Shown here piece after piece: positions 42,211-61,208 of a stretch of DNA of 64,000 bases (position 1 is its first letter; the number at the start of each line of letters is the position of its first letter). A program made the position numbers and the translations under genes. The DNA lies in assembly GCA_025617745.1 (NCBI GenBank), contig CM046867.1:30062705-30126704 (forward strand), given 5' to 3'. The notes under the pieces were generated by a model that saw nothing but the letters and a program-made list of their open reading frames with translations, was not told where the DNA came from and searched no databases. The DNA comes from Heliocidaris erythrogramma. Taxonomy: Eukaryota > Echinodermata > Echinoidea > Camarodonta > Echinometridae.

Positions 42211-43575
42211 GAATAGATACCATAAACAACCAAAGCCGAAGAAAGATGGATCGTAACAAGTTAAAGAAGGAGTCTTATCATCAGGCTGATATGATTATCA
42301 TAAAAGGAAACAAAAGTAAAACCAAACTATAATGCAAAATATCTTAAACAATTTATGCAGCAGGGCAGACTGAAATCATTGAGCATGTTTTATAACCTTG
42401 CAAAAGTATTAACATTTCTTAAAACAGATTAAAATTAAATTAAGATTAAATTGTAGAGGTAAATGAATGAAATGCAGCATAGAATGCTGTAAGTAATGAC
42501 CTTGCTTACACAACTATACAGTATTTTGTTTATGATCTATGACGCAGATAGTTTTCAAACACTTTACAATTCCAACAGAACTTTACAAAAGCCCTGCAGC
42601 AGCTACTTCTTAAGACAACCAGATTCAAGAAAAGAAAGATAACAAGTGAGCAACAACAAAAATGTTAAAGCCACTGCTATGTAGCATACCGCATGATCTG
42701 AAGAATAAAAATAACTCTTTACACTGGCATATTATGTGTAAGTATATAGGTCAGGTGCAATCGCTAATTGAATATATAATGATAATGATTAAAAGCAACA
42801 TACAACCAAATTTGAAGAATAGTGGATCAAAATGTTAAGTTTTCTTTCAGTCGGGCTAAAATAATTATCATACAGGGAATAATCCTAACTATCTATGCCG
42901 CATAAATAGATTAAAATCATTGAACATGTTCTTTAACTTTGCCAAAATACCATCATTTCTAAACATGGATGAAAATCTTTCATTTTATACAGCTGCTTAC
43001 AGCATAATAAATTTGTACAGATTCTAATGAATTGCTTCATTTTACTGCACAGTCTGCGTTTTTAACAGTTACAACCGCTGACCTGAAGTTTAAAATAACT
43101 TTTACAAGCATAACGAATTACAAAACACTAAAAGACATTGAGAGTAAAACAATCCTCATCGTAAAAAATAGAAATAAGGAATTACACATGGAGAAGAAAA
43201 CATTCTGACCTAAATTAATGGCTTTCCAGTGCCCCGCCTTATAAGGAGTTGAAGCGATTTATTTGAAACAATCGCAAGTTAAAATCAATCGCAACTGTGT
43301 ACTTAACATAGGCCTAGGCATAGGCGTACGAGAAGGGGGGCTGCTGCAGCCAACCCCCTCCCCCGGATTTTGAAAGTGCCGATATTCCGGCAACTCACAC
43401 CTCATATTCAGGGAGTGAGGTGCCCGAATATCCTCATATTCCAGTCATTATATGCCGAAATATGTTATTTTTATGATTTTCACAACGGAAAGGCACAATT
43501 ATTTTTGGTCGCTAGCTACGCGCGCTCGTAAATAAAAAAAAAGGAAATTTGCTATCATATTTTTTACAACAAAAA
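42211..43575. other. Foldback B centre, no gene
   Basis: AT-rich DNA with two loosely similar segments (42340-42480 and 42890-43010 share TTGAACATGTT...TTAACTTTGCCAAAA-type phrases). Nothing else recognised. Confidence 0.6.
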
Positions 43576-43581
43576 GGCCAT

Positions 43582-43660
43582 AGGTGCCGTAACAGGGATC
43601 AAACCCCCAACCTTCGCGTTTCCAGTCAAGCGCTGTAAACCGTTCGACTACGACACCTCC
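43582..43660 (-). repeat. tRNA-derived SINE head (reverse strand)
   Basis: Read on the minus strand: GGAGGTGTCGTAGTCGAACG (A box), an anticodon-arm region CTTGACTGGAAACGCG and B-box-like GGGTTTGATCCC. It matches the heads of the SINEs at 2254 and 8931, but no SINE body follows. Mismatches in the stems argue against a functional tRNA. Confidence 0.7.
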
Positions 43661-43900
43661 ACACACGCACACACACACATAAACACTTATTCGATTTTTC
43701 TAATCTCGTCCTCTTATTTTCGTCTCTTTTCTCTTCTCCTCTCCTCTTTTATAAACCTTCCCAGTTTTGTGTCTCCATTTCATTTTTTTATTCATTGCGG
43801 GGGTGGGGGAGGTGCTTTTCGTCGAAAAGAGATCCCCTTTTTGAAGATGGCAATTAAAACCATAATATCCTATCGTTACCCTAAATTTTCCCTTTAACAG

Positions 43901-44145
43901 TGGCGTAGCTAGAGTCTAGCCATTGTGGGAGCACTGGCACCATTGGAGGCACAAGTCTTTTGGAATAATCTTAAAGCTAATCTAAGACACCGCTGGTGGA
44001 AGAGGGTTGGGGGGGGGGGATTGCCGGAAGGGGTCCAACCGTCTTCTTTCCTATTTTATTTTATTTCTTTTTTTCTTATTTTTTGCCATCCGATGAGGGA
44101 GGGGTGGGGCGTGCCCTGCCCCCCCCCCGTTGCTACACTTCTGCT
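43901..44145. mobile_element. Possible hAT-like MITE remnant beside foldback arm B
   Basis: CAGTGGCGTAGCTAGAG at the left and CCCGTTGCTACACTTCTG at the right look like degenerate ends of the CAGTGGCGTA family, with G and C runs between. No duplication. Confidence 0.45.
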
Positions 44146-44777
44146 CCTGATGAATTCGCCTTTTTTTTTTACCAGGAATTATGAACCCTATTTCATTTTT
44201 CGGAAATACGAACCCTATTTCATTTTCGGAAATACGAACCCTATTTCATTTTCGGAAATACGAACCCTTTTTCATTTTCGGAAATACGAACCTTATTTTA
44301 TTTTCGGAAATACGAACCCTTTTTCATTTTCGGAAATACGAACCCTTTTTCATTTTCGGAAATACGAACCTTCGGAATTATGAACCCTTTTTCATTTTCG
44401 GAAATACGAACCTTCGGAAATATGAACCCTATTTCATTTTCGGAATTATGAACCTTCGGATAAACGAACCTTCGGATAAACGAACCTTCGGAATAACGAA
44501 CCTTCGGAATAATGCAACAAATGTTCGGAATTACGAACCCTTTTTCATTTTCGGAATTATGAACCCCCAGGCATGGGAAATTAGTGTTTCGGAAATACGA
44601 ACCTTCGGAAATACGAACCTTCGGAAAAACGAACCTTCGGAAAAACGAGATGCCCCCTTGCCATCTACATGTATTGCCATCCAACTTGATAATAGTAGCA
44701 GTTTACTTGAAGCTACCTGACTTCAATTACTCTGTTGCCTGTGTAAAAGAAAAAACAAACTAACCTTTCTTTGACAC

Positions 44778-44994
44778 TGTTGTAAAAAGGTATATACATG
44801 CAAATGTATTCATTCCTCCTACTCACGGTTAACACCTGGGTAACATCCAATGGTGCGCGCGTACATACATAATTCAATGGACCTGGTTATACACCGGACC
44901 GGATGTGTATATGTATGTGTATCAAAGCCTACTCAGGCATGGTGCACGTACGTGTGCGCACGTGTGCGCATCCGCTGCTCCCCACCAAGAGGCT
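44778..44994 (+). repeat. 5' LTR (recognisable segment)
   Basis: TGTTGTAAAAAGG, CATGCAAATGTATTCATTCC, GGTTAACACCTGGG, GCGCGCGTACATACATAATT and GTCCGCTGCTCCCCAC-like phrases recur in the same order at 55076. Similarity ends near 44994. The full LTR end, with PBS, could not be placed. Confidence 0.8.
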
Positions 44995-46560
44995 TATTTT
45001 GCACTAAACTCAGAGTTTTGTGCTATTACTGCTTAAATTATTATTTTTCCGTAGTTTTATCTTTTGATATTAGTTTGTGAATGATTATTTCCGTATTACA
45101 TTATTGTTGTGTGTGATTTTCAGGCTTACTACCGTGTGATAATTTTCTTCGAGTTCGCACATGTGATTTGACATACGTGTATCTCGTGTGCATTGACAAT
45201 CGATGTCAATTTGTCTTGTGTTTTTGCATGCTTTTGGGGATTTTTCCATGCATATTACGATATTTTAACGGCTTTGAATAATCTTTCTTAACAATTCTAG
45301 ATTATTATCTGCGCTCGCTTCGCGAATTTTTGGCATTTTCGATAGCACGTGATTTTTTTCCACGATAAGGGTACGCCATTTTTTGCCTGGAATGCCTGCA
45401 TCTCATTACCATGCGAATATCTCTTTTTCTTTGCACAACGAACAGGCAATCCACAAGTTGTTTACGAAGCCTGTGTTGGAATTTGCCGCTCAGCTATTCG
45501 CTTATATGGCGTGATAGTCTGATAATTCAGACAATTTTTTAAATCGTGTGCTGCTATACAATTTATTGTGAAGTTCTTGATTGGTGTTTTCGAGTATCAT
45601 TCTTGAATTTTAGCTGCATAATTTTTGCTTTATTAAAGTCATTGCTTGAATATTTGAATGCAATAAGTGATACTTTTTGTTAGTCCTGAACTGATTTCAC
45701 TTCTAGTTCTGTAGACTTCAGCTAGTTATCATTTGCAGACCTTGTTCTTATTGAACTGGACAGTGTTGCATTTAGATATTCTGTGCTGCTTTAAAATTTT
45801 AGATTGCGTGTCTCTTGCAATTGCCAGTATTCCAAATATACTTGTGTTTATTCACTGCGCAATTTCTAGATATAGGTTTTTGGAATGCTATCACGTTTAT
45901 TTTGAGAAAAAAATTTGAACACAATATTGAAATTAATCCGCTATAAGATTGATATGGCTTATAGATTTGACTAAATCTTTGTGGCAAATATGTTTGCTGT
46001 TTGCTGATTTTTTTCTTTTTTGTGCGAGTGTGGTTTCTTCCTTTTAAAAAAAAAAAATAAAAAATAAAAAAATAAGAATAAATGATGGTAATAAAACAAA
46101 AGGATAGAAATCAATTGTAGTTGCTCATGTGTGTATGGTTGATTGAATATTTGCCTCAAGAATTTAAAGTTTTATATTAATATTCTCTTTTGCTTGCATT
46201 GACTTGCTCATTGTTACAGCTAATATTTTTGATCATTTAGTGCATTTGGTTTGAGTTGAGATCGGTCTGAATTTAACCAGATCTCTCTATTCGAATACAC
46301 TGTATTAGGAAATTGCGTTTAATCTGAATACAACCGGATTTATTAATCATTTTTTAGTTTTAATATTGCTTGAACTAACATCTCTTATCCATTGCATAGA
46401 TTTCCAAGTAAGATTAACCAGAACTCTTTACTTGGAGATTATGAAATTGTAAGTTAGTTGATCTGAAAATAACAGGTTTTCTGATTCAAGTTCTATTCTG
46501 GAAGACATATTTTCAGGAAGTTGATTAATTTTAGTTTCGGATACTAAAACCCACTTTGCC
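44995..46560 (+). other. Long AT-rich 5' leader of the retroelement
   Basis: About 1.6 kb between the recognisable LTR segment and Gag with no ORF of interest and no homologue at the 3' end. It ends TTTTATTTTAATTCTTAG at 46605, a possible splice acceptor, four bases before the Gag ATG. Part of it may be U5/R of a longer 5' LTR or an unrelated insertion. Confidence 0.5.
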
Positions 46561-46608
46561 TTTTCCAAGTAGGAGAGTTAGATTCATTTTATTTTAATTC
46601 TTAGAATC

Positions 46609-47034
46609 ATGGGAAAAATTAGGATTAATTATTGTACTGAGGAGAATTTGAGAAGGGTACCTGGCATTGGTCCCTCAATTTCGAATCAGATTATTGGGCT
46701 CCAATATGCAAAAAAGAATTTAACTCCATCCTGTTTTTTAGAAGTCTCCCATTTCAAGAAGACTCCTGAAGAATTGGAGGAGTTGTTTGATTTTTCTCCA
46801 TATCATTACTCTCAAGATTTCGAAATGCAAAACACTAAAGCTGACGCAGCACAGCAAATAGCTCAAGCTGATCACAAAGTTAGAGGCGCAAGACAGCAAG
46901 CGTCTCAGACAGAGTATACTGCTGAGATTGCGCCTTCTGTTTCCCCACCTATTTCTGGGCGGGAAATGGCACTAGCTGATAATCAACATTTTATGACGGA
47001 CAACCATGAATTGTATGCTAGTGTTTCTCGATAG
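46609..47034 (+). pseudogene. Gag N-terminal part with helix-hairpin-helix-like motif
   Basis: 141 codons, ATG at 46609. Residues about 4-45 (INYCTEENLRRVPGIGPSIS, then NQIIGLQ...SCFLEV) look like a ComEA-type helix-hairpin-helix: an IN-T-EEL start, a PGIGPS hairpin and an II helix. Such motifs bind the nucleic-acid backbone. This is unusual at the start of a Gag and the call is inference. After the TAG at 47032 the protein continues in other frames. Confidence 0.65.
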
Positions 47035-47940
47035 CCCACTAAACCTTCAGAGGGTGATGCCAAGATCAAGGCGGCGCAGTCATCTGCTGCACCTCTGAAG
47101 GAAAGGCATCAAGCCAATGTAGTGCTAAGAGGACACGATGCAGACAGGGCTCAAGCATCAGGGATTCCAGATACTCTGGAGACCAAACGCGAGTCCATTC
47201 GTGAGTCTGATCATACAAATAGAGAACAAAATTATACGCGTTCCCAAGATTCAAGCTGGGAAGAAAAACGATCGCGTTATCCCATGGAAACCAAACATGA
47301 ATTTGTTCGTGAATCCCAACGAGATTTGGGTCGGGATCCAAATTATAGACGATAGACGTCCCCGGGATGATAGTTGGGAGGAAGAAAAGAACTTGCTATC
47401 CGGCTGATGATCACTACAGATCAAGAGCCAGGAGTCCTTCTCCGTACTATAGCCCCTCTCATCGAGATCATAGGGAGTATAGGGAGTCAAGGGATATGCG
47501 CTCGCGTAAGGATTCGTACTATCAAAGGGATTCCCACACACGATGGGATTCACGATATAAAGTAGGATTTATGTCACCACCACCGATAAATAGGTCCCAA
47601 AACGATGGGTATTCTCGTTCTCATCAGGGGTCTAATTATAAAGATTCTCATTATCGAGATTCTCATTATCGAGATTCTCATTACTGAGAATCTTCGCCAC
47701 CAGTAGATAGATCATTTCCTTATCGTGATTCCCGGCGTTTGCATGATAGGGAATCGTCCCCACCATTGAACCGCGGTAGAACAGCGCAATCATACACCTG
47801 GGAGGAATACATGTTTTAGGTGTGGCACGTTTGGTCACTTTATCAAAGAGTGTCCACTAGCAAATCAAGATAAATCTGTTTCATTTGCTAGTATTGGAGT
47901 GGAAAACGATCAGGGATCAGAGGACGGGGCTCAACCCTGA
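47035..47940 (+). pseudogene. Gag C-terminal part: Arg/Ser/Asp-rich region and CCHC zinc knuckle
   Basis: Open segments 47122-47355 and 47367-47687 encode an RD/RS-rich region ending in three DSHYR-type repeats. After a TGA the zinc knuckle at 47812-47853 reads CFRCGTFGHFIKEC, an exact C-x2-C-x4-H-x4-C motif that binds packaged RNA. It ends with TGA near 47938. Several frame changes separate the pieces. Confidence 0.75.
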
Positions 47941-48161
47941 TCCCTGTAGATAAGGGCCATAGTGTAGATAGTGTAGATTTAAATACTGTTAATGTAAATT
48001 TAGATGTAACTAACACAGAACTTGCCAGGCCAGAACCAGTAATATCTGTAGAAGGGGAAACACCCCTGAAGACATTTCTGGATCTACCTTTCCTAAGATG
48101 GTTAAGTCTAATACAGGCAAGTCTTTGGGAAAGGAAACTACCCCCAAAAACTTGCCTAGAT

Positions 48162-49037
48162 TTGGTTCTCTTGAAGCCTTTCTTCCATTTTCAGGAGGGT
48201 GGATCGGTGTCTGATTTTCAGGCAGGTCTCCAATCTTCTCCCCTGCAGAGTCCTTGGTTTATTCCACCGTGGCTGCCCCCTCTGGGAGTTTCAAATGAAT
48301 CTCTAGAGAATCCCACAGAGGCGAGTGTGCCTTTTCAAGAGGCGTGCGCGGGAGATGAATTGCTTGTGGAAGTGGTTGTTTGTATGCTGAAAACCGCTTC
48401 TGCTTTGAGTGTTGATTTACTTTTTAGTGATCGCCATTTAAGAGCAGTAGTGGATTCAGCTGCCGAGGTCACGATCTTATCTGATCGAATTTATTCTACA
48501 CTTCATCCGAAACCACCAGTGGTTAAACATGTTATTCTTAATACTGCGGGCCGTGAGTTGAAAATGAAAGGTATGATTGTTGGACCAGTGAATATGAAAT
48601 TGGGGAAACATGAATTTATAGATATGGTTTATGTTGCCCCGAGTGATGACGACATGTTACTGGGACTAGATCTTCTCTTTAAACATAAAGCCAAAATAGA
48701 TATAGCAGGGTCAAAATTATTATTTCATGGCGAAGATATTCAAATGGTTAAGGGAAGACAAAAGAAAGGTCCAATTGTTCCGGTATTTGTTCAAGGTTCA
48801 ACAGTTATTCCTCCTAGATCCGTGGCGAGAGTACAATGTGGAACTGCTGTAGATCTAAAAGAATTTCTTATTGAGCCCTATACTGATCTGAGAGGATTGT
48901 TTCCGCGTTTACTACATAAATCTTCCAATTCTTTTGGATTATATGTGGTGAATCCTATGGATCAGAATCTACATTTGAGACACGATCAAATTATCGGGGA
49001 AGCTCAAGAGGCTATCATCGTTGACCCTGTAATGTAA
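48162..49037 (+). CDS. Retroelement aspartic protease region
   Basis: 291 open codons. Residues 96-105 (AVVDSAAEVT) are the active-site loop; the usual D-S/T-G is D-S-A here (D98). Residues 160-172 give PSDDDMLLGLDLL, the helix that precedes the protease C-terminus. It would cleave the Gag-Pol precursor. The glycine-to-alanine change occurs in some retropepsins. The segment is open but isolated from Gag and RT by stops. Confidence 0.8.
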   Translation: MVLLKPFFHFQEGGSVSDFQAGLQSSPLQSPWFIPPWLPPLGVSNESLENPTEASVPFQEACAGDELLVEVVVCMLKTASALSVDLLFSDRHLRAVVDSAAEVTILSDRIYSTLHPKPPVVKHVILNTAGRELKMKGMIVGPVNMKLGKHEFIDMVYVAPSDDDMLLGLDLLFKHKAKIDIAGSKLLFHGEDIQMVKGRQKKGPIVPVFVQGSTVIPPRSVARVQCGTAVDLKEFLIEPYTDLRGLFPRLLHKSSNSFGLYVVNPMDQNLHLRHDQIIGEAQEAIIVDPVM

Positions 49038-49088
49038 GATTCTTCTGAGGAAGGCAAGCGAGTTCAAGGAGTCGAATTATCGACTAAC

Positions 49089-49742
49089 TTGCAAATTCCT
49101 GCCCATCTTCAGGATCTATGGGAGCGATCCAAACAGAACGTATCACCCGAAGAAGAAGAAGTTCTTACAGAATTATTTGTGGAGTTTGAAGGGGTATTTG
49201 CAAAGGATGAATTTGACATCGGTAACTTTACAGATATTGAACATCCAATAGTTACAGGTGATGCTAACCCCATCAAACAAAAGATGAGGCGCACACCTAT
49301 GAATCTTGTAAATGAAGGACGAGCACATCTAAACAAGATGTTATCTGCTGGTGTTATTCAACCCTCAGTGTCAGAATGGGCATCTGCTCCGGTATTAGTA
49401 CGAAAACGGGGTGTGCGTTGGTGCATAGACTATCGAAAGTTAAATAAAATAACTAAAAAAGATGTCTACCCCCTCCCATGTATCGAGGAGTACTTAGATA
49501 CTTTGGCAAATAATACCTGGTTTTCTAAGTTAGATGCCAATTCTGCTTACTGGCAGATCAAACTCCGAGAAGCAGATCGAGAAAAAACAGCCTTCATAAC
49601 TAAACATGGGCTGTTTGAATTTGTTCGTATGGGTTTCGGTCTGTGCAATGCCCCACCTACTTTTTCTAGAGTAATGAATCTGGTTCTCAGAGGATTAAAC
49701 TGGGACACTGCACTCACTTTCTTTATTTCAACGATGTGTTGA
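49089..49742 (+). pseudogene. Reverse transcriptase, palm truncated before the YxDD box
   Basis: 217 codons. The finger motif is VRWCIDYRKLNKITKKDVYP; motif A is FSKLDANSAYWQIKL (D149); motif B is MGFGLCNAPPTF. After WDTALTF the sequence passes, with a frame change, straight to LFQRCVEFLGREV, which normally lies about 40 residues after the YxDD box. The catalytic YxDD is missing and the enzyme must be dead. The near-repeat GATGTGTTG at the joint suggests a short-homology deletion. Confidence 0.85.
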
Positions 49743-49758
49743 ATTTCTAGGCAGAGAA

Positions 49759-50285
49759 GTGGACGATTCAGGTCTTCATCTGAAGGAAGATCATATACAA
49801 GCCGTCAGGAACTGGCCCGTACCTACTAATACAAAAGAGGTTGAGCAGTTCCTTGGTTTGGTTAATTACCATAGAATCTTCCTTACAGACTATGCAAAAA
49901 CCGTGGGATCTCTCTATGGGTTAACCGGAAAACATGTCTTTTGTTGGGAGTCGGAACACCAGTTGGCTTTCAATCAGGTGAAGAAATTGATGACATCCGC
50001 TCCTGTTTTAACACTACCTAATTCAGTAGATCGGTTTATCCTAGATACTGATGCTTCTGCGACTGCCATTGGAGCTGAATTAATTCAACTTCAGAATAAT
50101 CAGGAGAAAGTGATTGCTTATGGTAGTCTTTCCCTGTCTCCTGAGCAGCATTGATATTGCGTCTCTCGGCGCAAGCTTCTAGCAATAGTTAGATTCACGC
50201 GCCAGTACAGACATTATCTTTTGGGTAAACCGTTTACAGGAAGAACTGACCATGGTAGTTTAACTTGGTTACTTAATTAATTTTA
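49759..50285 (+). pseudogene. RT connection and RNase H
   Basis: The open stretch 49759-50154 holds the thumb/connection (VEQFLGLVNYHRIFLTDYAK) and RNase H start FILDTDASATAIGAEL (first Asp). It continues after a TGA at 50152 with KLLAIVRFTRQYRHYLLG and GRTDHGSLTWLLN. The expected catalytic Glu before LLAI is Lys here. Stops and a frame change follow near 50275. Confidence 0.8.
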
Positions 50286-50345
50286 AGGAACCTCAAGGTC
50301 AACTGGCTCGATGGTTAGAAGAATTGGGCCAGTATGATATGAAAG

Positions 50346-50936
50346 TTGAACCAGGGAGGATGCATAAAAACGCGGATGCTCTTTCTCAGATACCCGAGAC
50401 GGACAACCGAGACGGACAACCTGTGTAATGAATACCGTTTAGGTATTGTACCCAAGGATCTCCCATGTCATGGTTGTGCTTACTGTACGAAAGCGCATGA
50501 TAATTGGTCACATATTTTGGAAGTGGTGGATGATGTAGTTCCACTACCAAGCAAATCAGAAAAGGTGTCAAAAATTAATTTAGAAAATCCAGTCAAATCT
50601 AGTCAAGAAGACATTGTGTTTAATTTAAGGCAGATGAAAATTTCTTCTTCCCAGGGCTTACCTGTTTTTTCCATTAATTTAATGAATCCCGAGGACGTGT
50701 CTCCGATCACTGATGAAAATCTTTCATCCTCAGAATTTCTCAAGAAAGAACAGAAGTCAGATGATCAGCTTGTACGTTTGTATGGCTGGTTCACGTCCAA
50801 AGAACATATTGACGAAGGTACATTATTATTATTGGATCCCGCTAGTAAGTTCTTATGGATTAATAAGGAATTATTTTTTGTTAAAGATGGACTTATCTGG
50901 AAAAAAGATCAGGAAAATGAAACAATGCTCAGATAG
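50346..50936 (+). CDS. RNase H-integrase linker region of pol
   Basis: 196 open codons beginning in the linker (upstream LARWLEELGQYDM is in another frame). It has CHGCAYCTKAHDNW, a Cys-rich motif found between RNase H and integrase in this Gypsy lineage as I remember it. Otherwise low-complexity acidic and helical sequence to FLWINKELFFVKDGLIWKKD, the usual start of the integrase zinc region. It is interrupted by a TAG at 50934. Confidence 0.7.
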   Translation: MNQGGCIKTRMLFLRYPRRTTETDNLCNEYRLGIVPKDLPCHGCAYCTKAHDNWSHILEVVDDVVPLPSKSEKVSKINLENPVKSSQEDIVFNLRQMKISSSQGLPVFSINLMNPEDVSPITDENLSSSEFLKKEQKSDDQLVRLYGWFTSKEHIDEGTLLLLDPASKFLWINKELFFVKDGLIWKKDQENETMLR

Positions 50937-51712
50937 TGGTGCCTCATTCACTCCAACGTGAAGTGATAAGACTTAATCATGATATTCCGTCAGCAGGTCA
51001 TGCTGGGATAAACCGGACCAGAAGTAAAATCAGGACCAGGTATTTCTGGTATGGTATGTCACGGGATATACAGAATTATATCAGGGAATGTGCACCATGC
51101 AACCAAAACAAGAAATTGGTAAGATATGGCAAGCACCCCCTGGTAAATTATCATGCAGGAGCTCCCATGGAACGAGTTCATCTTGATTTCATGGGGCCTC
51201 TACCTAAAACCTCCAGCGGGAATGAACATGTACTGGTAATGGTAGATCAGTTTACCAAGTGGGTTGAATGTGTGCCTTCTCAATCGGCAGAGGCCATGGC
51301 TCATGCGGCTGTGACAGAATTTTTCTGTAGATTTGGATATCCATTTCAAATCTTCACAGATCAAGGTAGGAACTTTGAAAGTAAATTATTTGAAAATCTA
51401 TGTAATCTCATGCAAATTCACAAAGCCAAAACTACTCCGTACAGGCCATCGTCCAACGGACAAGTTGAACGATATAATCGAACGGTTATGGATGCTGTAC
51501 GGTGTTATATTGGTAAATCCCAAAACCAATGGGATAAGTTCGTATCTCAGATCGCCGGGGCAATTCGATCTACGGTAAATCGAAGTACCGGTTTCACGCG
51601 GCCTAACCGATTGATGTTGGGTAGAGAAATCAATTTACCAGCTGACCTCATGTTCCCTCTTCCAACTTCCAAGCATCTTTACCTTCTATGGATGACTATT
51701 CAGGTCAGTTAA
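50936..51712 (+). CDS. Integrase: HHCC zinc domain and DDE core
   Basis: 258 codons. The zinc ligands are H15, H22, C52 and C55 (HDIPSAGHAG...CAPC). The catalytic core has D84 (HLDFMGPLP), D142 (FTDQGRNFES) and E178 (SSNGQVERYN), with the D-x35-E spacing of retroviral-type integrases. All three catalytic residues are present. The frame ends by drifting out at about 51670, where the C-terminal part continues in the next frame. Confidence 0.92.
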   Translation: MVPHSLQREVIRLNHDIPSAGHAGINRTRSKIRTRYFWYGMSRDIQNYIRECAPCNQNKKLVRYGKHPLVNYHAGAPMERVHLDFMGPLPKTSSGNEHVLVMVDQFTKWVECVPSQSAEAMAHAAVTEFFCRFGYPFQIFTDQGRNFESKLFENLCNLMQIHKAKTTPYRPSSNGQVERYNRTVMDAVRCYIGKSQNQWDKFVSQIAGAIRSTVNRSTGFTRPNRLMLGREINLPADLMFPLPTSKHLYLLWMTIQVS

Positions 51713-52197
51713 CTGAAGCTCTCCATTTGGCTCATGAGGCTGCCAGAGAGACATTACGTTCAACCCAGGAACGTATGAAGAGGGATTATGATGTCAGAGT
51801 ACATCAAAGAGCATTTCAGGAAGGAGATAGAGTGTATCTCTTGAACACGGCAGTTCCCAAAGGAAAGAGCAGGAAATTGTTCTCTCCTTGGAAGGGTCCT
51901 GCTGTGATAATCAAGAGATACTCCCCCTATCTTTATCGAGTTGTTTATCGGAACAAAGCTTTTGTGATAAACCACGATACACTAAAGAAATGCACCGATT
52001 CTAGTGCTCTTCCTGAAAAAGCAACGCGGAGGAAAGAACTATATTGCTTCTGTAAGAAACCAGATGATGGCTCCTTCATGATCCAATGTGATGACTGTGA
52101 CGAGTGGTTTCACGGTCATTGCGTTAAGGTCACCCCGGGGGAAGGAATGACTATTGACAAATATCATTGCCCGTTTTGTAAACAGAAGGGTAGATAA
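51688..52197 (+). CDS. Integrase C-terminus with PHD finger
   Basis: 169 codons in the frame after integrase. First the helical EALHLAHEAARETLRSTQER and a GPY/F-like module (LFSPWKGPAVIIKRYSPYLY). Then, at 52042-52188, a complete C4HC3 PHD finger: YCFCKKPDDGSFMIQCDDCD, EWFHGHC and YHCPFC. Tyr before the first Cys, Met before the third and Trp after CDDCDE fill the aromatic-cage places of H3K4me3 readers. In chromoviruses this position holds a chromodomain that guides integration. Histone binding is inference; the fold call is firm. Confidence 0.9.
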   Translation: MDDYSGQLTEALHLAHEAARETLRSTQERMKRDYDVRVHQRAFQEGDRVYLLNTAVPKGKSRKLFSPWKGPAVIIKRYSPYLYRVVYRNKAFVINHDTLKKCTDSSALPEKATRRKELYCFCKKPDDGSFMIQCDDCDEWFHGHCVKVTPGEGMTIDKYHCPFCKQKGR

Positions 52198-52302
52198 GTT
52201 TAATGATTTTTATTGTATGTAACTTGCATGTGCATGAAGTTATTTTTTTTTCACTTTGCATGTGAATTATTTGCATGAGATTGCATATAGTAATAGTCAT
52301 TT

Positions 52303-52325
52303 CTTTCCTTTCTTCCCCCTGCAGA
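52303..52325 (+). promoter_or_regulatory. Strong candidate splice acceptor before ORF3
   Basis: CTTTCCTTTCTTCCCCCTGCAG ends at 52324, one base before the ORF3 ATG (52326-52328). It looks like a textbook 3' splice site. A spliced message would move the third ORF next to the leader, as env messages of retroviruses do. Confidence 0.65.
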
Positions 52326-53480
52326 ATGGATGCAACAATCGACCTAGGGTTGGATAGTGAGGGGGAGCGGGATGCGCTCATGGATGTGGAGGGGGGGGGG
52401 GGGGTTGGTCGGGGGTTAGAGAGTTCAGTCGCTGATTTGATAGAGGAGTCAGCAGCTGCTCTTACCCAGGAAGTACTGGAGTCTGTGTGGACGGACCTGT
52501 CTAGTGTGGTACCAGTCGTAACGACGGGCCCATCTAGTGCGGGACCAGTCGCAACTTTCTCCAGTAAAGTTAGATTTGGCGGACCCGCTCATGGTGGGAC
52601 CAGCTACAGTCCCCCCATCAGGTGTCGCACAGGAGGACATGTTAAAGATGGGACCACCTGCTGCGATTCTTGAGGATGTTGCCATGGAGGTTCCACTGCC
52701 TGTGGAACCTACTGCAGCTCCTATGGGTGGGAGTGTGGAGACTCTGCCGGTTCTTGCGGGATCGGTAGTAGCTCCCCGTAAGAGACGCAAGCGTAAAAGG
52801 AAGCTCTCTAAAGGTGCTGCAGTGGCGGACCAGCCGTAGCCCGTGCGAAGGTTGCCAAGAGCAACTCGAAGAAGGGCGCTGCAATGTCGGACCAGCCAAG
52901 TGTCGGACCAGCCGCAGCTCCTTTGAGAAAGAAGAAAGGAGACCCCAGGTGGTGCCTCTTTAGGAAATCTAAGGGTGCTGTGGCCACACCTCCGAATCCA
53001 TATCATATGGGTTCTGAGGTAAGCCACGATGAAGCTAAGCCTCTTAATACAGGTGGTGTTAGCCCCCCTTTCGTGGGCCTCTCTATCGGTAAAGGTAGGG
53101 GACTTGCTGCCAGGATTCAACCGGTGGCTGCCCCAACCCCTTCAGCTACTTCGGGTAGTAGTGCAGGCTCCCATTCAGTGAGTTTCGCTTCTGGAAGAAG
53201 TAGGGGAATTGTCGCCCGGACCCTGCCCCTGGCCGTAAGAGGCTGCCAAGTCAGCAGCCCTCCACCATTAGGGTAAAGGAACCTGCTGCTCGGACCCAAC
53301 CAGCAGCGGATCCTGTTCCTTCTGCCAAGCAGAGTCTTGACCAGGGGACTGGAACTGGCAAGTCAAAGGCTACCAAAAGACGTCAGAAGTGTCCTGTGAG
53401 TGATTGCAGATATACTTCGGCAAGAATTCGACAGCATATCCTGCGTCACTGTCCGGAATACTTCCGGCCACAGGCTTAAA
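52326..53480 (+). pseudogene. ORF3 N-terminal part: Pro/Ala/Ser-rich, basic tract, zinc-finger-like motif
   Basis: Starts MDATIDLGLDSEGERDALMD behind the acceptor. A G12 run at 52390 and later frame changes (near 52530, 52840, 52880 and 53280) break it. The pieces include a nuclear-signal-like APRKRRKRKRKLSKG, Pro/Val/Ala repeats and, at 53390-53480, CPVSDCRYTSARIRQHILRH then CPEYF (C-x4-C...H-x3-H). A TAA at 53477 ends that piece. I do not recognise the N-terminal part. Confidence 0.6.
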
Positions 53481-53512
53481 ATACCGGTCCTCAGTGGGAG
53501 AGAATTCTGCGT

Positions 53513-54702
53513 TTGAGGGTGGATGCACTGTGTTTAATTGAACAGTTCTTGGTGGGAGCGGAGGCGACTTTAGATGAGCTAGTTCGTCTGGTGAATGCTC
53601 AGTGGCAGGCAGTCAATCCTCGTCTTACTTATGAGGATCTGCTAGAGATGGGAGCCATGATCAACCAGCAATCTTGGTTGAAAGTGAATCCCTCTCTGCA
53701 ACCAATAAACACCCTGGCGGCACTTGTTCACTTCAGGCCTCCGGTGTTCCTGGTGAATCAGCTCTCGGCCGATCAATTGAGACAATTGGTTGAGTTGGGA
53801 GAGGTTCGCCCAGGTAGACCTGCTCCTATGGTTCCAGAACCGGTTCCCCAACCTGAGCCACAGCCAGAGAGGGTTGAACGAACGGCGGAACCAGCCAATC
53901 CCGCTGAACAATTTCCCAGGGGTTTTGATGCTCACTATCATCAAGATCGTATGCAATGAATGATGCAGAGATCTAGAGGGCATCAACAACCTCTAGCTCC
54001 TGGTAAAGAACCGGAGCATTACGTTCATGTTGAAGGGGGGGGGTCAAGAACAACTGTGACCCTGAGTTCTTCACAACCCCTCAATTTGAGCAGGTGCTCC
54101 GAAACGAGTAGTGGGACTCCACTTGGAGGTTGGCGGTGGGAATCCACCCCAAGAAGGCTGTTTTCTTCACATCCCAACAATGGGATCAACTGGTGCAGCA
54201 CCTTGCACATCCCAGAGTTGTTGCCATGAGTGAAGTCGGACTCGACTTCACGGCACCCAAGAATCAATGGAGGTGTCAGGAAGACCTTCTGAACCGCCTC
54301 CTAAATCTTGGAACTCTGGGTCATGTTATGGTGATGCACCTGAGAGGTGTGCATTCTGATCACCTTAACCAGGTTCCATCTCGCCTGGCTCTGAGACTGC
54401 TTAGGCAGAAATGCTCAACTCACCAGAGAATACATTTGCATTGTTTCTCTGGTAATGTTGCTATGGTCAGATCCTGGACCGGAGCATTTTCTCACTGCTA
54501 CTTCGGGATTTCAGGCCTTGTAAAAGGCTTCTCCCAAGAGCAGTGCCAGGCAGTACGGGAAATTCCATTGGATCGGCTCCTTCTGGAAACCGATTCGCCA
54601 CATCTTAAGGTCCATTTCGAATTGGAATACAATACCCCACTATTTCTGGGTGATGTGGGCCAATTTGTGGCTCTATGTGTAAGCCTTCAGTTCATTGATT
54701 GA
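53513..54702 (+). pseudogene. ORF3 C-terminal part: TatD-like metal-dependent nuclease
   Basis: ORF 53513-53959 ends FDAHYHQDRM, the HxH metal motif that opens TatD domains, preceded by a helical region and a Pro/Glu linker. A frame then carries CDPEFFTTPQFEQVL (TatD-like CDP motif) with a TAG at about 54108. ORF 54130-54702 (190 codons) gives AVGIHPKKA, SEVGLDF (E35), VMVMHLRG (H70), IHLHCFSGNV (H104), GISGLVKGF and LLLETDSPHL (D155). All metal-site positions of the TatD DNase family are present. TGA at 53957, a G-run frameshift near 54040 and the TAG break it. Confidence 0.85.
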
Positions 54703-55057
54703 TTTTTTGGATTCAACCAAATCATTGCTTATTTTTCTGATTTGAAATATACATACCCTTGTTTATTTTGAGGTATTTGGTTCAGTATGACAGAATGAGT
54801 CCTCGTCGAAGGGGCCCTTCATATATACATTCCAATTTAATTTGCGGAATTTGTGTTTATTGAAGAAATTTTGATGAGTGCATTTTTTCTGAATATTGGA
54901 GTCCAGATCAGTCTATTTGAGAAGTAAATTTTTTTTTTTTCTGATATTCCGGTATCAGTTAGGATATTATAACCAAGATGGTTCCGTTCCCAATATCCTG
55001 ATACTAATTGGGGTTTTGGGAAGATTGCGCAATATTTGTTTTAATATATGCTGCAAT

Positions 55058-55075
55058 CTAAGGGACCAGGGGGAG
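55058..55075 (+). promoter_or_regulatory. Polypurine tract of the retroelement
   Basis: AAGGGACCAGGGGGAG directly abuts TGTTGTAAAAAG at 55076, as a plus-strand primer site should. It fixes the start of the 3' LTR. Confidence 0.8.
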
Positions 55076-55275
55076 TGTTGTAAAAAGTCATGCAAATGTA
55101 TTCATTCCTCCTACTCACGGTTAACACCTGGGTTACATCCAATGGTGCGCGCGTACATACATAATTCACTGGACATGGTTATACACCGGACCGGATGTGT
55201 ACATGTATGTGTATCAAAACCTACTCAGGCATGGTGCACGTACATGTGCGCGTCCGCTGCTCCCCACAAAGAGAC
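55076..55275 (+). repeat. 3' LTR (recognisable segment)
   Basis: Matches the 5' LTR segment in order with about a dozen differences, lacking a short piece after AAAAAG. Similarity stops after GCTCCCCACAAAGAG. The following sequence (GACTGGGGCGCGTACGG) has no match in the 5' copy, so the copy is recombined or truncated. Confidence 0.8.
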
Positions 55276-56990
55276 TGGGGCGCGTACGGTGACGGGACCT
55301 GGAGCAGGATGACTACTTTCTACCCACTCTTGTTCCTGACTTCCAATGCTTCAACACATGTTCGCTGACGACTTACTTCAACTTTGTGCAACTACTTGAA
55401 GCTTGCTGTGGTCTTGTAGTGGTTTTGTATGTGAGAGTTGAAAAATCAATTTTCAATCTTTAGGGTAACAGTGTTATAGTAAAATTGTAGTGATATTTGA
55501 TTTTAGTTTTATTAGAAAGGAGCTGATAGAGATTTATGATGTTTCTTTAAATAGAGTATTTAGTTGTTATTGGAATTATTTTTGTTTCTGTGTTATTACG
55601 TGTTTGTGAATGTTTTTTTTTTGTTCAAAATGTTGTGTGGAATTAGTTGTGGTAATGTTGAGTATGATATTGTAATTATGTTTTGTGGATAAATATGTAG
55701 ATATTAAACGTGTTGGTATTTCATGAGAATTTGTAGGGAAGTTTGTGTTTAGTATATTACAATTTGGATATTGAGTGTTTATATGTTTATTTTTCATTTT
55801 ATGTAGTTCTTTGAGATAAATAATGACATCTGAGACGACTTTGATCATCCACCAAAGGTCACTGTGAAGCAGGTCAAAGAGAGCCCTCTTTGACACACAT
55901 ATTTACCCCCCCCCCCTCCTAGAAGAAGACTGTGATACTATTTGTTCTTAGTTAACTGGATACAGACCTGAAATTGTCTTGGTGAAGACTTATCTCACTG
56001 CCTTCATGTAGATCTTTTAATGCGAACAATGTATTGTTGAACTCTTTGTCCAACTGAATACTCTGTTCTGTAGCACTTTGTACTTATTAGGTGATCTGTC
56101 GTAGTCGATAGATCACCTATTATATTCGTCAGAATTTTCTTTCTTTATTTCTTTATTTATTTATTTATTTTTATTTTCTCCCACTTTCTTGTTTCCACGA
56201 AATCTCAAAAACTTTTCAGTCAATTTTCATGACATTTCCGTCAGTCATCAGGTCATATAAGGTCAAGCTCCAAAATCGTGAATCTGTAACCTTTATTCCC
56301 AGCTATACTGTATATCCAATGGGGGTAGACCACTGCGGCAGAAGAAAATCCCAGCGAAGTACAAGGATTTTGTTCTTACTTAGTAAAAGCTTGTTGTTTA
56401 ATGCAGGGATTAACAGATGGATCACTGTTTGTTATTTGACACAGAGATAATCAGTTGGATCAGTGTGTGTTATTAAACGCGGGGATAATCAGACGAGTCT
56501 TCTGCGAGTGAGCGTTCGAGTTAGTTAGGCAACCTGAGCCACGACAGCGGGCAGAATAATCCCGAGGCTCATGGTTGGGGATTGATACCTTCACTCTATC
56601 ATCCCATATTGTTTTTTGTGTTCAGTGTTTGAAGTGTAATATAGCAAGATCAAGATCATCAAAATCATCAAGATTTGGAGCCACATGTATATATACCAAA
56701 AGGTCAACAGTCTGAACAGATATACGAAAAGAAATCAAGATCAAATATGACTCATAAAAACACTTGACAATATTCTGATAAACATATGTTTTATTCACAT
56801 TTATTTGAAAAAAAAAAAAAAAAGATGACTTACAAGTCAAATTGATGGAGCTAATTTCGGTTCATGTGACCTCTAAGTTCTCTGATAATTTTTTAGTTGT
56901 TTTTGGCATTCAGTTTTATGAGAAAGTGGTATTATGAAAAAAATCTGATTTTTAATCAAAACAAACAAAATTAAAATAAAGAAAGGGAGA
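55276..56990. other. Stretch with no gene
   Basis: AT-rich DNA with T-rich runs (55600, 56145-56175), a C run at 55905 and a 13-bp palindrome pair TAGGTGATCTGTC/ATAGATCACCTA at 56088-56120. It may include the rest of the 3' LTR. A purine run AAAGAAAGGGAGA (56978-56990) precedes the next LTR. Confidence 0.6.
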
Positions 56991-57262
56991 TGTTATGGGA
57001 TATTGAGGCTGGAACCTAGACTAGCACCATGAGTGACAGTATGCAAAACGTAGCGTCTCTGTAAGCAGGGCATATAGAGATATCCGATATAACATGACAT
57101 GACAGTGTTCTTGTGCGATCTCGTCTCCGTGTGATTTATTAGCTTATTGTGCTCCTTATAAGCTAACAATTACAAGCAGAAACTGAACTTCACACATCTC
57201 TGTGCTAAATGCTAATTATTATGTTGTCCTTATAAAGAACCCATTATGTTAGAACATAACAA
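56991..57262 (+). repeat. Short LTR (272 bp) of a second LTR retroelement
   Basis: Ends are TGTTATG and CATAACA, a perfect 7-bp inverted pair with TG...CA. A purine run abuts the left end and, 2 bp beyond the right end, TTGGCAACGAGGATGGGATC looks like a Gypsy-type primer-binding site (57265-57284). No coding region of the element follows before other sequence. Confidence 0.75.
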
Positions 57263-57496
57263 TTTGGCAACGAGGATGGGATCAAACTGATGCAAGTTTG
57301 GAATCGACAAAATGTGTGAAATGGACTACGGGACAACTTTGCTTTGGACATTGGTCGCGGATCGTAGCCCTCAGCCAATTAGAGTTGCCATGGTAGCTGA
57401 GCGTACCGTTATACGGCAAACGTATCACCCGCACAGTGAATAATGCAAGGCTGTGTGTGAAGGTAAATAAATGAACGCTTTGCGGCATTGCCGCAG

Positions 57497-57685
57497 ATAC
57501 CAGCAGCCTTGACAGCTCAGACAGTGACGAGGATGATGGAGAAATTGGTGATTTTGTTGAGGATAATTTGGAGGATGATCGCAGCGAAAGAAGAGCTGCC
57601 CAGGCGGACGCCCAGCCGAGAGCCTACCAGCATGAACCCGAGCCGCGACGGGTGGAAGCCGCTGACCCAGACCCGGAAGCGCGCG
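57497..57685 (+). CDS. Possible acidic exon of unknown gene
   Basis: Between an acceptor-like ATTGCCGCAG (ends 57496) and a donor CGCG|GTGAGC (57685/57686) one frame reads DTSSLDSSDSDEDDGEIGDF, then VEDNLEDDRSERRAAQADAQ and a Glu/Pro/Arg tail. The acidic DSSDSDEDD stretch resembles the start of piggyBac-type transposases, but it is too short to assign. Confidence 0.35.
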
Positions 57686-57827
57686 GTGAGCTAGCTGGTC
57701 ATATTTTCGATTTTCGAATTTGCTATTTTCGATGTCTTCTATCAAACATAGTGGGGCAAATATTCCTCCTAAGAAAATAAGATTATTCCCCAAAAGGCAA
57801 AGCCTTTTTAAGGATGATTTGTAAACG

Positions 57828-59300: not shown

Positions 59301-61208
59301 AAGAATCCCCGATAGGGGCTGTAACACCAGATCCGCTCTTAACGGGAGAACTAACGGTTGAGCCCTTAGAAGGCTCATAAGTTCCGGAAACCAATTCCTC
59401 CTGGGCCAAAAGGGAGCTATTACAAGCACCCTCGCCCGATCTTCCCTGATTTTCCGCAAGACACGCGGAATCAGTTGGAAGGGAGGAAAGGCGAATCCCT
59501 GAAGGTTCTCCCAGCTGAGGGAGAAAGCATCGAGAGCCCATGCTCCCTGATCGCGAACATGGGAGCAATACTTCGGCAGCTGGTGATTTAGCACCGACGC
59601 AAATAGATCCACTTCCAGTGGACCTAGGCAACTGCGAATGCGGCAAAATACCTCCGGATGGAGCATCCATTCCGATGGAAGATACCTGCCCCGGGACAGA
59701 AAATCCGCAATGAGGTTTTCCCGACCGGGGATGAAAGAGGCCACGGGTGTGATTGCCATGCGACGACACCACCTCCACAGCTGAGCTGCTAGGGCATTCA
59801 GGGCAACCGAACGAGTGCCTCCCTGCCGATTGATATATGCCGCCACAGTAACATTGTCCGTGAGAATCAGAACCGAACGACTGAGAAGTCGACTTCTGAA
59901 ATGGAGCAAGGTCAACAGAACTGCCATAAACTCCAGGACATTGATATGAGGAAGAGTCCCAAGATGAGACCAATCCCCCGCAACCGTGCTGCCGTTGCAG
60001 TGTCCTCCCCACCCCAACCGAGAGGCAGAGAAGGACCTGCCTCGCGCGAGAAACACCTCGCTCGTCCAACAAGCGAGAAGAGACTTGATCTTTACTGGTA
60101 CTGGAATCCAGACCAAAAGAGAGTCTTTTCCCGGCTTGAAGAACCTGAGGAGATGTCTCTGAAAGGGTCTCATGAGGAGCCGGCAGTCCTCTAAAACATC
60201 GACTAGACTGGCTAGATAACTTAGAAACTGAAGCCACTGTCTGGCCGAGACTCTTCTGGCCAGCAAGAGCTTGCGAGCCGCAGAGACAATGGTGAGAATC
60301 CTGTCTCGACTGGGCCGAGCTAACTGATTCCTTATGTCTAACACCGCCCCCAGAAAAACTGGGCTGCGAGTGGGGACTAACTCTGACTTTTCCCAATTTA
60401 TTAGGAAACCTAAGTCTTGAGTAAGAGAGACGAGCAAACGAGTCTCGTCCAACAAACGATCGCGCGACTCCGCAAGGAGAAGCCAATCGTCCAGGTAACA
60501 AAACAACCGCAGGCCGCGACGCCTCAGAAAGGCCGCTAGCACCGCTACAACTTGAGTAAAAATCCGAGGGGCCGGGCGCAGCCCGAAGGGAAGAGCCCGA
60601 AAACGATAAGTCTCCGAGAGGAAGGAGAACCCCAGAAGATCGCGAGATGCGCGATGAATGGGAATGTGAAAGTACGCGTCCTTGAGATCTATCGAGACCG
60701 CGTAGTCTTCCCTTTTTATCAACGGAAGAATGGAGGCAAGAGTCTCCATCCGAAAATGAACCGGAGGAATAAATTTGTTTATCCTTTTTAGGTTCAGTAT
60801 CAAACGAAGTTTTCCCGAGCGCTTGGGAATAACAAATATTGGAGAAAGGGAAAGAGACGGCCTGTCTCTTACCCTTTCTATAGCCCTCTTTTCCAGAAGA
60901 GACTCGATCTCCTTTGAAGCATGAGATCGAGACAGGGCAGACATGGGAGGTGACCGAATTCTTATAGCCCCTCCGGGGAGCGAATCGCAAAGATCTATGA
61001 AGAATCCGTCTCGCACGACGGAGAGAACAAACGCGTCCCCGGAGATGGCCTCCCAAGCGGGGAGAAACGCGTGAAGACGGCCACCTACCACATTCGGTTG
61101 AACAAGCGCTCGGGGAAAAACATCAAAACCCAGGCTTGGCCTTCTGCGAAGCCATCGCCTTACCACGAGTACCTCTCGAAATGCCCCTGCCACGACTCCC
61201 TCTCCCAC
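59205..61208 (-). CDS. DIRS reverse transcriptase-RNase H
   Basis: 667 codons. RT motifs: SIDLKDAYFHIPIH (D174), RFRALPFGLRPAPRIF (motif B, about 202-217) and FCYLDDWLLL (YLDD at 238-241). RNase H follows: INVLEFMAVLLTLLHF and VLILTDNVTVAAYINRQGG, then HxxRENLIADFLSRG-like sequence. It copies element RNA into DNA. The ORF start overlaps the end of the Gag-like ORF by 86 bp, and the end overlaps the recombinase frame by more than 1.8 kb of open sequence. All catalytic Asp residues are present. Confidence 0.93.
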   Translation of the reverse strand: MGEGVVAGAFREVLVVRRWLRRRPSLGFDVFPRALVQPNVVGGRLHAFLPAWEAISGDAFVLSVVRDGFFIDLCDSLPGGAIRIRSPPMSALSRSHASKEIESLLEKRAIERVRDRPSLSLSPIFVIPKRSGKLRLILNLKRINKFIPPVHFRMETLASILPLIKREDYAVSIDLKDAYFHIPIHRASRDLLGFSFLSETYRFRALPFGLRPAPRIFTQVVAVLAAFLRRRGLRLFCYLDDWLLLAESRDRLLDETRLLVSLTQDLGFLINWEKSELVPTRSPVFLGAVLDIRNQLARPSRDRILTIVSAARKLLLARRVSARQWLQFLSYLASLVDVLEDCRLLMRPFQRHLLRFFKPGKDSLLVWIPVPVKIKSLLACWTSEVFLARGRSFSASRLGWGGHCNGSTVAGDWSHLGTLPHINVLEFMAVLLTLLHFRSRLLSRSVLILTDNVTVAAYINRQGGTRSVALNALAAQLWRWCRRMAITPVASFIPGRENLIADFLSRGRYLPSEWMLHPEVFCRIRSCLGPLEVDLFASVLNHQLPKYCSHVRDQGAWALDAFSLSWENLQGFAFPPFQLIPRVLRKIREDRARVLVIAPFWPRRNWFPELMSLLRAQPLVLPLRADLVLQPLSGILHHNPESLHLTAWPLSGNLQDSRVSLIEPRTF

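What the first reader, a model, noticed from the sequence alone, without database searches (positions are those of the whole stretch)
52326..54702. Third ORF with a TatD-type nuclease in an LTR retroelement, in the env position
Downstream of integrase, inside the LTRs and polypurine tract, a broken ORF carries the HxH, Glu, His, His and Asp metal positions of the TatD DNase family (DAHYHQ, SEVGLD, VMHLRG, HLHCFSG, ETDSP), plus a Cys/His motif and a nuclear-signal-like basic tract. Retroelements normally keep env or nothing here. A captured host-type nuclease could trim cDNA ends or act on host DNA. I know of no described element with this layout, but my recall is not exhaustive.
Basis: partly seen in the sequence, partly recalled or inferred. 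Interest (0 to 1): 0.88.

Follow-up and report, generated by a model that had tools for sequence, protein, structure and literature searches.

The report
Jumping gene carrying a TatD nuclease
A family of virus-like jumping genes in an animal genome carries, where related viruses keep their envelope gene, a third gene for a DNA/RNA-cutting enzyme resembling an animal repair enzyme, and copies across the genome keep its active site intact, so the enzyme probably serves the jumping gene.

Summary
Between a PHD-ended integrase and the polypurine tract/3' LTR, the window holds a broken third ORF: basic tract, Cys/His motif, helical domain, TatD nuclease (PF01026, E 3e-29). It is not an accident of this copy. 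In the window's own genome 150 TatD matches were scored; 128 have no stop in the matched stretch. Of the 30 best loci, 25 have integrase and/or PHD upstream. One family is dispersed; two of its copies have 99.7-100% identical LTRs and 4-bp target duplications. TatD codons are under purifying selection (dN/dS 0.06-0.23 in unsaturated pairs; the window's piece 0.14, dS 1.16). Metal residues are kept, except in decayed L005, where covered. A strong splice-acceptor-like site precedes the ORF3 ATG in the window and 4 of 8 other loci tested, suggesting env-like expression. Acanthaster has the same order in one gene model; sea urchin, Lingula and Mytilus proteins are relatives. The clade is sister to animal TATDN2-like proteins with bacterial TatD as outgroup. 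Ten literature searches showed no description. What the nuclease does for the element is inferred: most likely it trims or clears RNA/DNA intermediates in the nucleus. Whether related elements lack TatD could not be tested.

The parts
44778..44994 (+). 5' LTR, apparently shortened
   Evidence: 193/217 identical columns with 55076 onward
46609..47034 (+). gag-like ORF piece with helix-hairpin-helix motif (weak)
   Evidence: PF12836 E 2e-4, below cut-off
48162..49037 (+). aspartic protease part of pol
   Evidence: PF13650 above cut-off, PF13975 just below it
49089..50277 (+). reverse transcriptase and RNase H parts, in several frames
   Evidence: PF00078, PF17919, PF17917; tblastn pieces
50933..51712 (+). 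integrase: H2C2 zinc-binding and core domains
   Evidence: PF17921 E 1.8e-21, PF00665 E 1.6e-10
52036..52188 (+). PHD finger that ends pol
   Evidence: PF00628 E 4e-10; nearest solved chains PHF2, BPTF, DIDO1, CXXC1
52299..52325 (+). splice-acceptor-like tract directly before the ORF3 ATG
   Evidence: 2 of 3708 plus-strand AG sites of the window score as high, this one included, under a home-made model
52326..53389 (+). ORF3 N-terminal part, broken; basic tract at 52777-52812
   Evidence: translations; comparable basic tract in P0121 and P0122
53390..53449 (+). C-x4-C-x9-H-x3-H zinc-finger-like motif
   Evidence: same spacing in P0121, P0122, P0123, P0128, P0129, P0135
53481..53806 (+). helical domain, shared by long ORF3 relatives (limits approximate)
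   Evidence: confident model
53927..54699 (+). TatD nuclease domain, in two frames
55060..55075 (+). polypurine tract
   Evidence: sequence directly before the 3' LTR
55076..55373 (+). 3' LTR; end taken from similarity to copy L005

Best explanation
This is a decayed copy of a Ty3/gypsy-type LTR retrotransposon lineage whose third gene, in the env position, encodes an accessory nuclease. Shown: ORF3 has a basic tract and (in the long forms) a zinc-finger-like motif and helical domain, followed by a class II TatD domain with its metal ligands kept; it sits inside the mobile unit and its codons are under purifying selection. Likely, from sequence: ORF3 is made from a spliced subgenomic mRNA, as retroviral env is, because a strong acceptor-like site lies just before its ATG in several families. 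Inferred: the protein enters the nucleus and, with the 3'-exonuclease, RNA-in-hybrid or abasic-site cleavage reported for its relatives, processes the element's own RNA/DNA intermediates (left-over RNA in hybrids, 3' ends, or damaged cDNA) before or during integration. I hold the architecture and constraint at about 0.95 and this mode of action at about 0.4; the figure below is for the whole statement.
Against: No activity, expression or splicing was measured. L004 (intact 693-aa frame) and L008 show no pol in the stretches read; L028 and L031 keep only an early pol piece. The Lytechinus protein P0123 has lost the last Asp, and P0031 and P0136 of the wider clade have changed metal positions. 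Donor-like sites in the leaders are unimpressive (best 3.9 in the window, 6.9 in L036; no control). Acceptor-like sites lie within 14 nt of the ORF3 ATG in only 4 of 8 other loci; L026, L040, L007 and L013 do not show this. L017 and L026 have near-identical integrase ends but diverged TatD, so parts recombine. Most between-family dS values are saturated; the finite but high ones give 0.16-0.39. Pol already carries an RNase H.
Confidence: 0.5

Rival explanations
1. ORF3 faces the host rather than the element's cDNA: it cuts host DNA or RNA, for example resolving R-loops at active chromatin where a PHD-guided integrase works, or removing host RNAs or repair intermediates that would silence or damage the element.
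For: Human TATDN2 is reported to resolve R-loops and medaka tatdn2 acts in germ cells (passages of PMC12709183); the pol PHD is closest to PHDs of PHF2, BPTF, DIDO1 and CXXC1, which are H3K4me3 readers by recall; ORF3 lies in its own frame and has a basic tract.
Against: No host target is known and nothing here separates host from element substrates.
Confidence: 0.3
2. ORF3 is an abasic-site endonuclease that repairs or clears deaminated element cDNA, comparable to the dUTPases of some retroviruses (comparison recalled).
For: Human TATDN1/TATDN3 and E. coli TatD enzymes cut abasic sites in duplex DNA (abstract and passages of PMC10085689); the class II ligands are kept.
Against: No evidence of cDNA deamination was sought; TATDN2, the nearest kin, is reported as an RNase.
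Confidence: 0.15
3. The TatD ORF is a passenger: a host gene caught by chance next to, or within, one insertion, without a role.
For: The window copy is broken; L004 is an ORF3 without pol nearby.
Against: Integrase and/or PHD upstream in 25 of 30 loci, TatD inside LTR-bounded units, constraint, and the same order in Acanthaster.
Confidence: 0.03
4. The TatD copies are mainly host genes (domesticated ORF3 or TATDN2 paralogues) and the selection signal is host selection.
For: Some relatives are annotated as genes (S. purpuratus LOC105438258); L004 is an intact frame without pol nearby.
Against: Several pairs with low dN/dS are dispersed copies with PHD upstream (L007/L009, L015/L016, L017/L025-L027). 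The pairs with L028, L031 and L004 are exceptions: these lack full pol.
Confidence: 0.07

Closest known systems
Human/medaka TATDN2 and animal TATDN2-like proteins
   Same: Class II TatD with the IHLHC-type His: present in 15 of 15 TATDN2-like rows (11 of them named animals), 29 of 31 rows of the retroelement clade and 0 of 11 bacterial-type rows (5 of them named bacteria); sister group when the bacterial rows are the outgroup
   Different: The retroelement clade (31 rows, 100/99) is separate; the window's member lies in an LTR element, and the long forms add a zinc-finger-like motif and helical domain
Ty3/gypsy LTR retrotransposons with env-like third ORFs (e.g. gypsy lineage)
   Same: protease-RT-RNase H-integrase order, LTRs, polypurine tract, target duplication, third ORF after pol
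   Different: The third ORF is a TatD nuclease; no envelope family was matched by Pfam in the pieces and relatives scanned
Gypsy elements with a chromatin-reading end on integrase (chromoviruses; recalled)
   Same: A chromatin-reader-like domain follows the integrase
   Different: Here it is a PHD finger, not a chromodomain
Non-LTR elements with an APE-type endonuclease (recalled)
   Same: A retroelement that carries a repair-type nuclease
   Different: Different fold, separate ORF, and the element keeps its integrase

Membership tests
TatD DNase family (PF01026) | Sequence match above the curated cut-off | tested here: met
   102.5 bits against a cut-off of 27
TatD DNase family (PF01026) | Metal ligands HxH, Glu, His, His, Asp | tested here: met
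   32 own-genome loci, the window's and its duplicate included: HxH 31 of 32 (not covered in L010), Glu and Asp 32 of 32, the other His 31-32 of 32; the two changes are in decayed L005
TatD DNase family (PF01026) | TatD TIM-barrel fold | tested here: met
TatD DNase family (PF01026) | Nuclease activity | not testable with these tools
   needs an assay
Class II TatD (TATDN2/TATDN3 type) | Both active-site His of HxH present | tested here: met
   DAHYH in the window; 31 of 32 loci. That class I lacks two active-site His is from passages of PMC10085689; that these are the HxH pair is my reading
TATDN2 orthologues | Grouping inside the TATDN2-like clade | tested here: not met
   Window falls in a separate 31-row clade, 100/99
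LTR retrotransposon, Ty3/gypsy order | PR-RT-RH-IN order between LTRs, polypurine tract, target duplication | tested here: met
   Order and tract in the window; 100% LTRs and duplication GGCC in copy L017; the window's own duplication was not found
Ty3/gypsy Mag lineage / C-clade | Grouping with SURL or Mag in an RT tree | not tested
   no reference sequences fetched
Env-bearing retroviruses/errantiviruses | Third ORF encodes an envelope glycoprotein | tested here: not met
   Pfam finds TatD and no envelope family in two ORF3 pieces of the window and in whole P0121 and P0122
Env-bearing retroviruses/errantiviruses | Third ORF from a spliced subgenomic mRNA | tested here: inconclusive
   Acceptor-like site 2-14 nt before the ATG in the window, L004, L015, L017, L030; not in L007, L013, L026, L040; no clear donor in the window

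The most novel reading that the evidence does not exclude
A multi-phylum class of animal LTR retroelements has a nuclease as its standard third gene, expressed env-style by splicing and working with a PHD-guided integrase: a self-made R-loop, hybrid or abasic-site nuclease required for the element's life cycle and derived from the TATDN2 stem.
Probability: 0.35. Interest if true: 0.88.

Novelty: new variant of a known kind. Interest (0 to 1): 0.77.

Why it matters
By recall, the third gene of an LTR element, where there is one, is usually an envelope. A conserved nuclease there, kept under selection in several families of one genome and with relatives in several phyla, gives a defined protein with which to ask what a retroelement needs that its own RT, RNase H and integrase do not supply. 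It also warns that some invertebrate 'TATDN2-like' or uncharacterised gene models may be retroelement ORFs, and gives a natural comparison for the poorly understood TATDN2.

Full report
What is in the window. A Ty3/gypsy-type element runs from a 5' LTR match (44778-44994) to a 3' LTR beginning at 55076. Its pieces read gag-like ORF, protease, RT, RNase H, integrase and a PHD finger that ends pol at 52188. ORF3 begins at 52326 and is broken by frame changes and stops. The intact relative P0121 (708 aa) aligns collinearly over its zinc-finger/helical and TatD parts: 53375-54040 at 50% identity and 54037-54672 at 66%. PF01026 scores E 3.3e-29.

It belongs to the element. The genome holding the window (1.06 Gb, 26 contigs) gave 150 scored matches to the 190-aa TatD piece out of 245 candidates, a lower bound; by my count 128 of the 150 rows have no stop in the matched stretch, and a few loci fill two rows. 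Of the 30 best loci, 23 have the PHD within the 1.5 kb read upstream, most of them with the integrase end; the window has both and L005 has integrase, making 25 of 30. L002 is a segmental duplicate of the window (flanks shared) and its pol was not read. L028 and L031 keep only an early pol piece in the same frame as TatD, and L004 and L008 showed no pol in the stretches read. One family has nine copies on several contigs, 97-99.6% identical between pairs; eight end at the same base and the ninth about two bases before it, each followed by a different flank. In L017 the LTRs (317 bp) are 100% identical, with target duplication GGCC, and in L021 99.7% with GATA (duplications read by eye). L040 shows a pol frame of at least 883 aa ending in PHD and then an 824-aa ORF3 frame. 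Acanthaster LOC110990915 has integrase, PHD and TatD in one gene model.

It is kept functional. Pairwise dN/dS (Nei-Gojobori) for TatD in pairs with unsaturated dS: L031/L040 0.14 (dS 0.47), the L017 group against L025-L028 0.14-0.23 (dS about 0.12), L015/L016 0.06, L007/L009 0.15 (within-family pairs listed only above 8 differences). Fisher p: 2e-21 (L031/L040), 6e-8 (L017/L026), 8e-7 (L015/L016), 0.003 (L007/L009); the site totals for the last two were typed approximately, and recomputed the first two with like results. The window's piece against L004: dS 1.16, dN 0.16, ratio 0.14, p 8e-23. Other between-family pairs are mostly saturated at synonymous sites; those with finite dS between 1.5 and 3.1 give 0.16-0.39. 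Many within-family pairs share branches and are not independent, and four loci with stops inside were left out (L002, L003, L008, L014). Metal sites over 32 loci: Glu and Asp 32 of 32; HxH 31, not covered in L010; the other His 31-32, with both changes in decayed L005. Among relatives, P0123 has lost the Asp, and P0031 and P0136 have other changes. Over 11 paired sets, integrase-end/PHD and TatD distances correlate (rho 0.76, 54 pairs; 2 of 5000 permutations); two of the sets rest on equal contig lengths. Against simple co-descent, L017 and L026 show near-identical integrase ends with diverged TatD, so ORF3 also moves by recombination.

How it is probably expressed. In the window the ORF3 ATG follows an acceptor-like tract; 2 of the window's 3708 plus-strand AG sites score as high, itself included, under a simple home-made model. 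Of eight other loci, the best such site lies 2-14 nt before the first in-frame ATG in L004, L015, L017 and L030; L026 has the same site with the ATG 252 nt on, L040 a middling one 85 nt before, and L007 and L013 none suitable. L030 also has a better-scoring site elsewhere. Donor-like sites in the leaders are unimpressive. Spliced, env-like expression is thus likely and not shown.

How it probably works. Passages of PMC12709183 report human TATDN2 as an RNA 3' exonuclease and endonuclease that resolves R-loops, and medaka tatdn2 as needed in germ cells; the primary TATDN2 paper (PMC10711561) is not held. The abstract and passages of PMC10085689 give 3'-5' exonuclease mainly on single-stranded DNA and abasic-site cleavage in duplex DNA for TATDN1 and TATDN3, and say that class I lacks two active-site His of class II (TATDN2/N3). 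An LTR element makes RNA/DNA hybrids, free 3' ends and sometimes damaged cDNA, all within reach of such an enzyme. I therefore favour a nuclear accessory nuclease acting on the element's own intermediates; host-directed action is the main rival.

Known or new. PMC3286476, PMC8556966 and PMC6238403 were seen as passages around search words: they speak of env-like ORFs, the Mag lineage and the C-clade; the word nuclease was looked for in the last two and found in neither main text. Ten literature searches (listed under Tried and rejected) and four further papers opened at the words TatD/TATDN2 gave no description of TatD in an LTR element. I file it as a new variant of Ty3/gypsy-type elements.

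Noticed in passing
L035/L038 and L039 (C9:5766232, C14:25642008): Element copies that lack integrase and PHD have protease-RT-RNase H in one frame with the zinc-finger/helical and TatD parts (1,491 aa in L039); L028 and L031 keep only an early pol piece in frame with TatD (frames of 631 and 629 aa).
   Followed up: partly
52036-52188: Pol ends in a PHD finger closest to PHDs of PHF2, BPTF, DIDO1 and CXXC1, which suggests chromatin-guided integration; many of the 120 listed relatives of P0129 carry a PHD too.
   Followed up: partly
L004 (C4:15147471): An intact 693-aa ORF3 frame with no pol detected in 2.6 kb upstream, where tandem repeats lie; possibly a domesticated or solo ORF3.
   Followed up: partly
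window 38109-57820 and C15:29673500-29689500: The window's element lies in a segmental duplication whose twin is about 432 kb away on the same contig; window 40377-44657 is absent from the twin.
   Followed up: partly
44159-44650: Tandem array of TTCGGAAATACGAACC-like units just 5' of the element, with an inverted relative at 40386-40780.
   Followed up: no
60337-60863, minus strand: Second reverse transcriptase piece (PF00078 E 9.5e-23), only 24% identical to this pol.
   Followed up: no
proteins P0011, P0141: TatD fused to CCHC zinc knuckles, grouping with TATDN2-like proteins and not with the retroelement clade.
   Followed up: no
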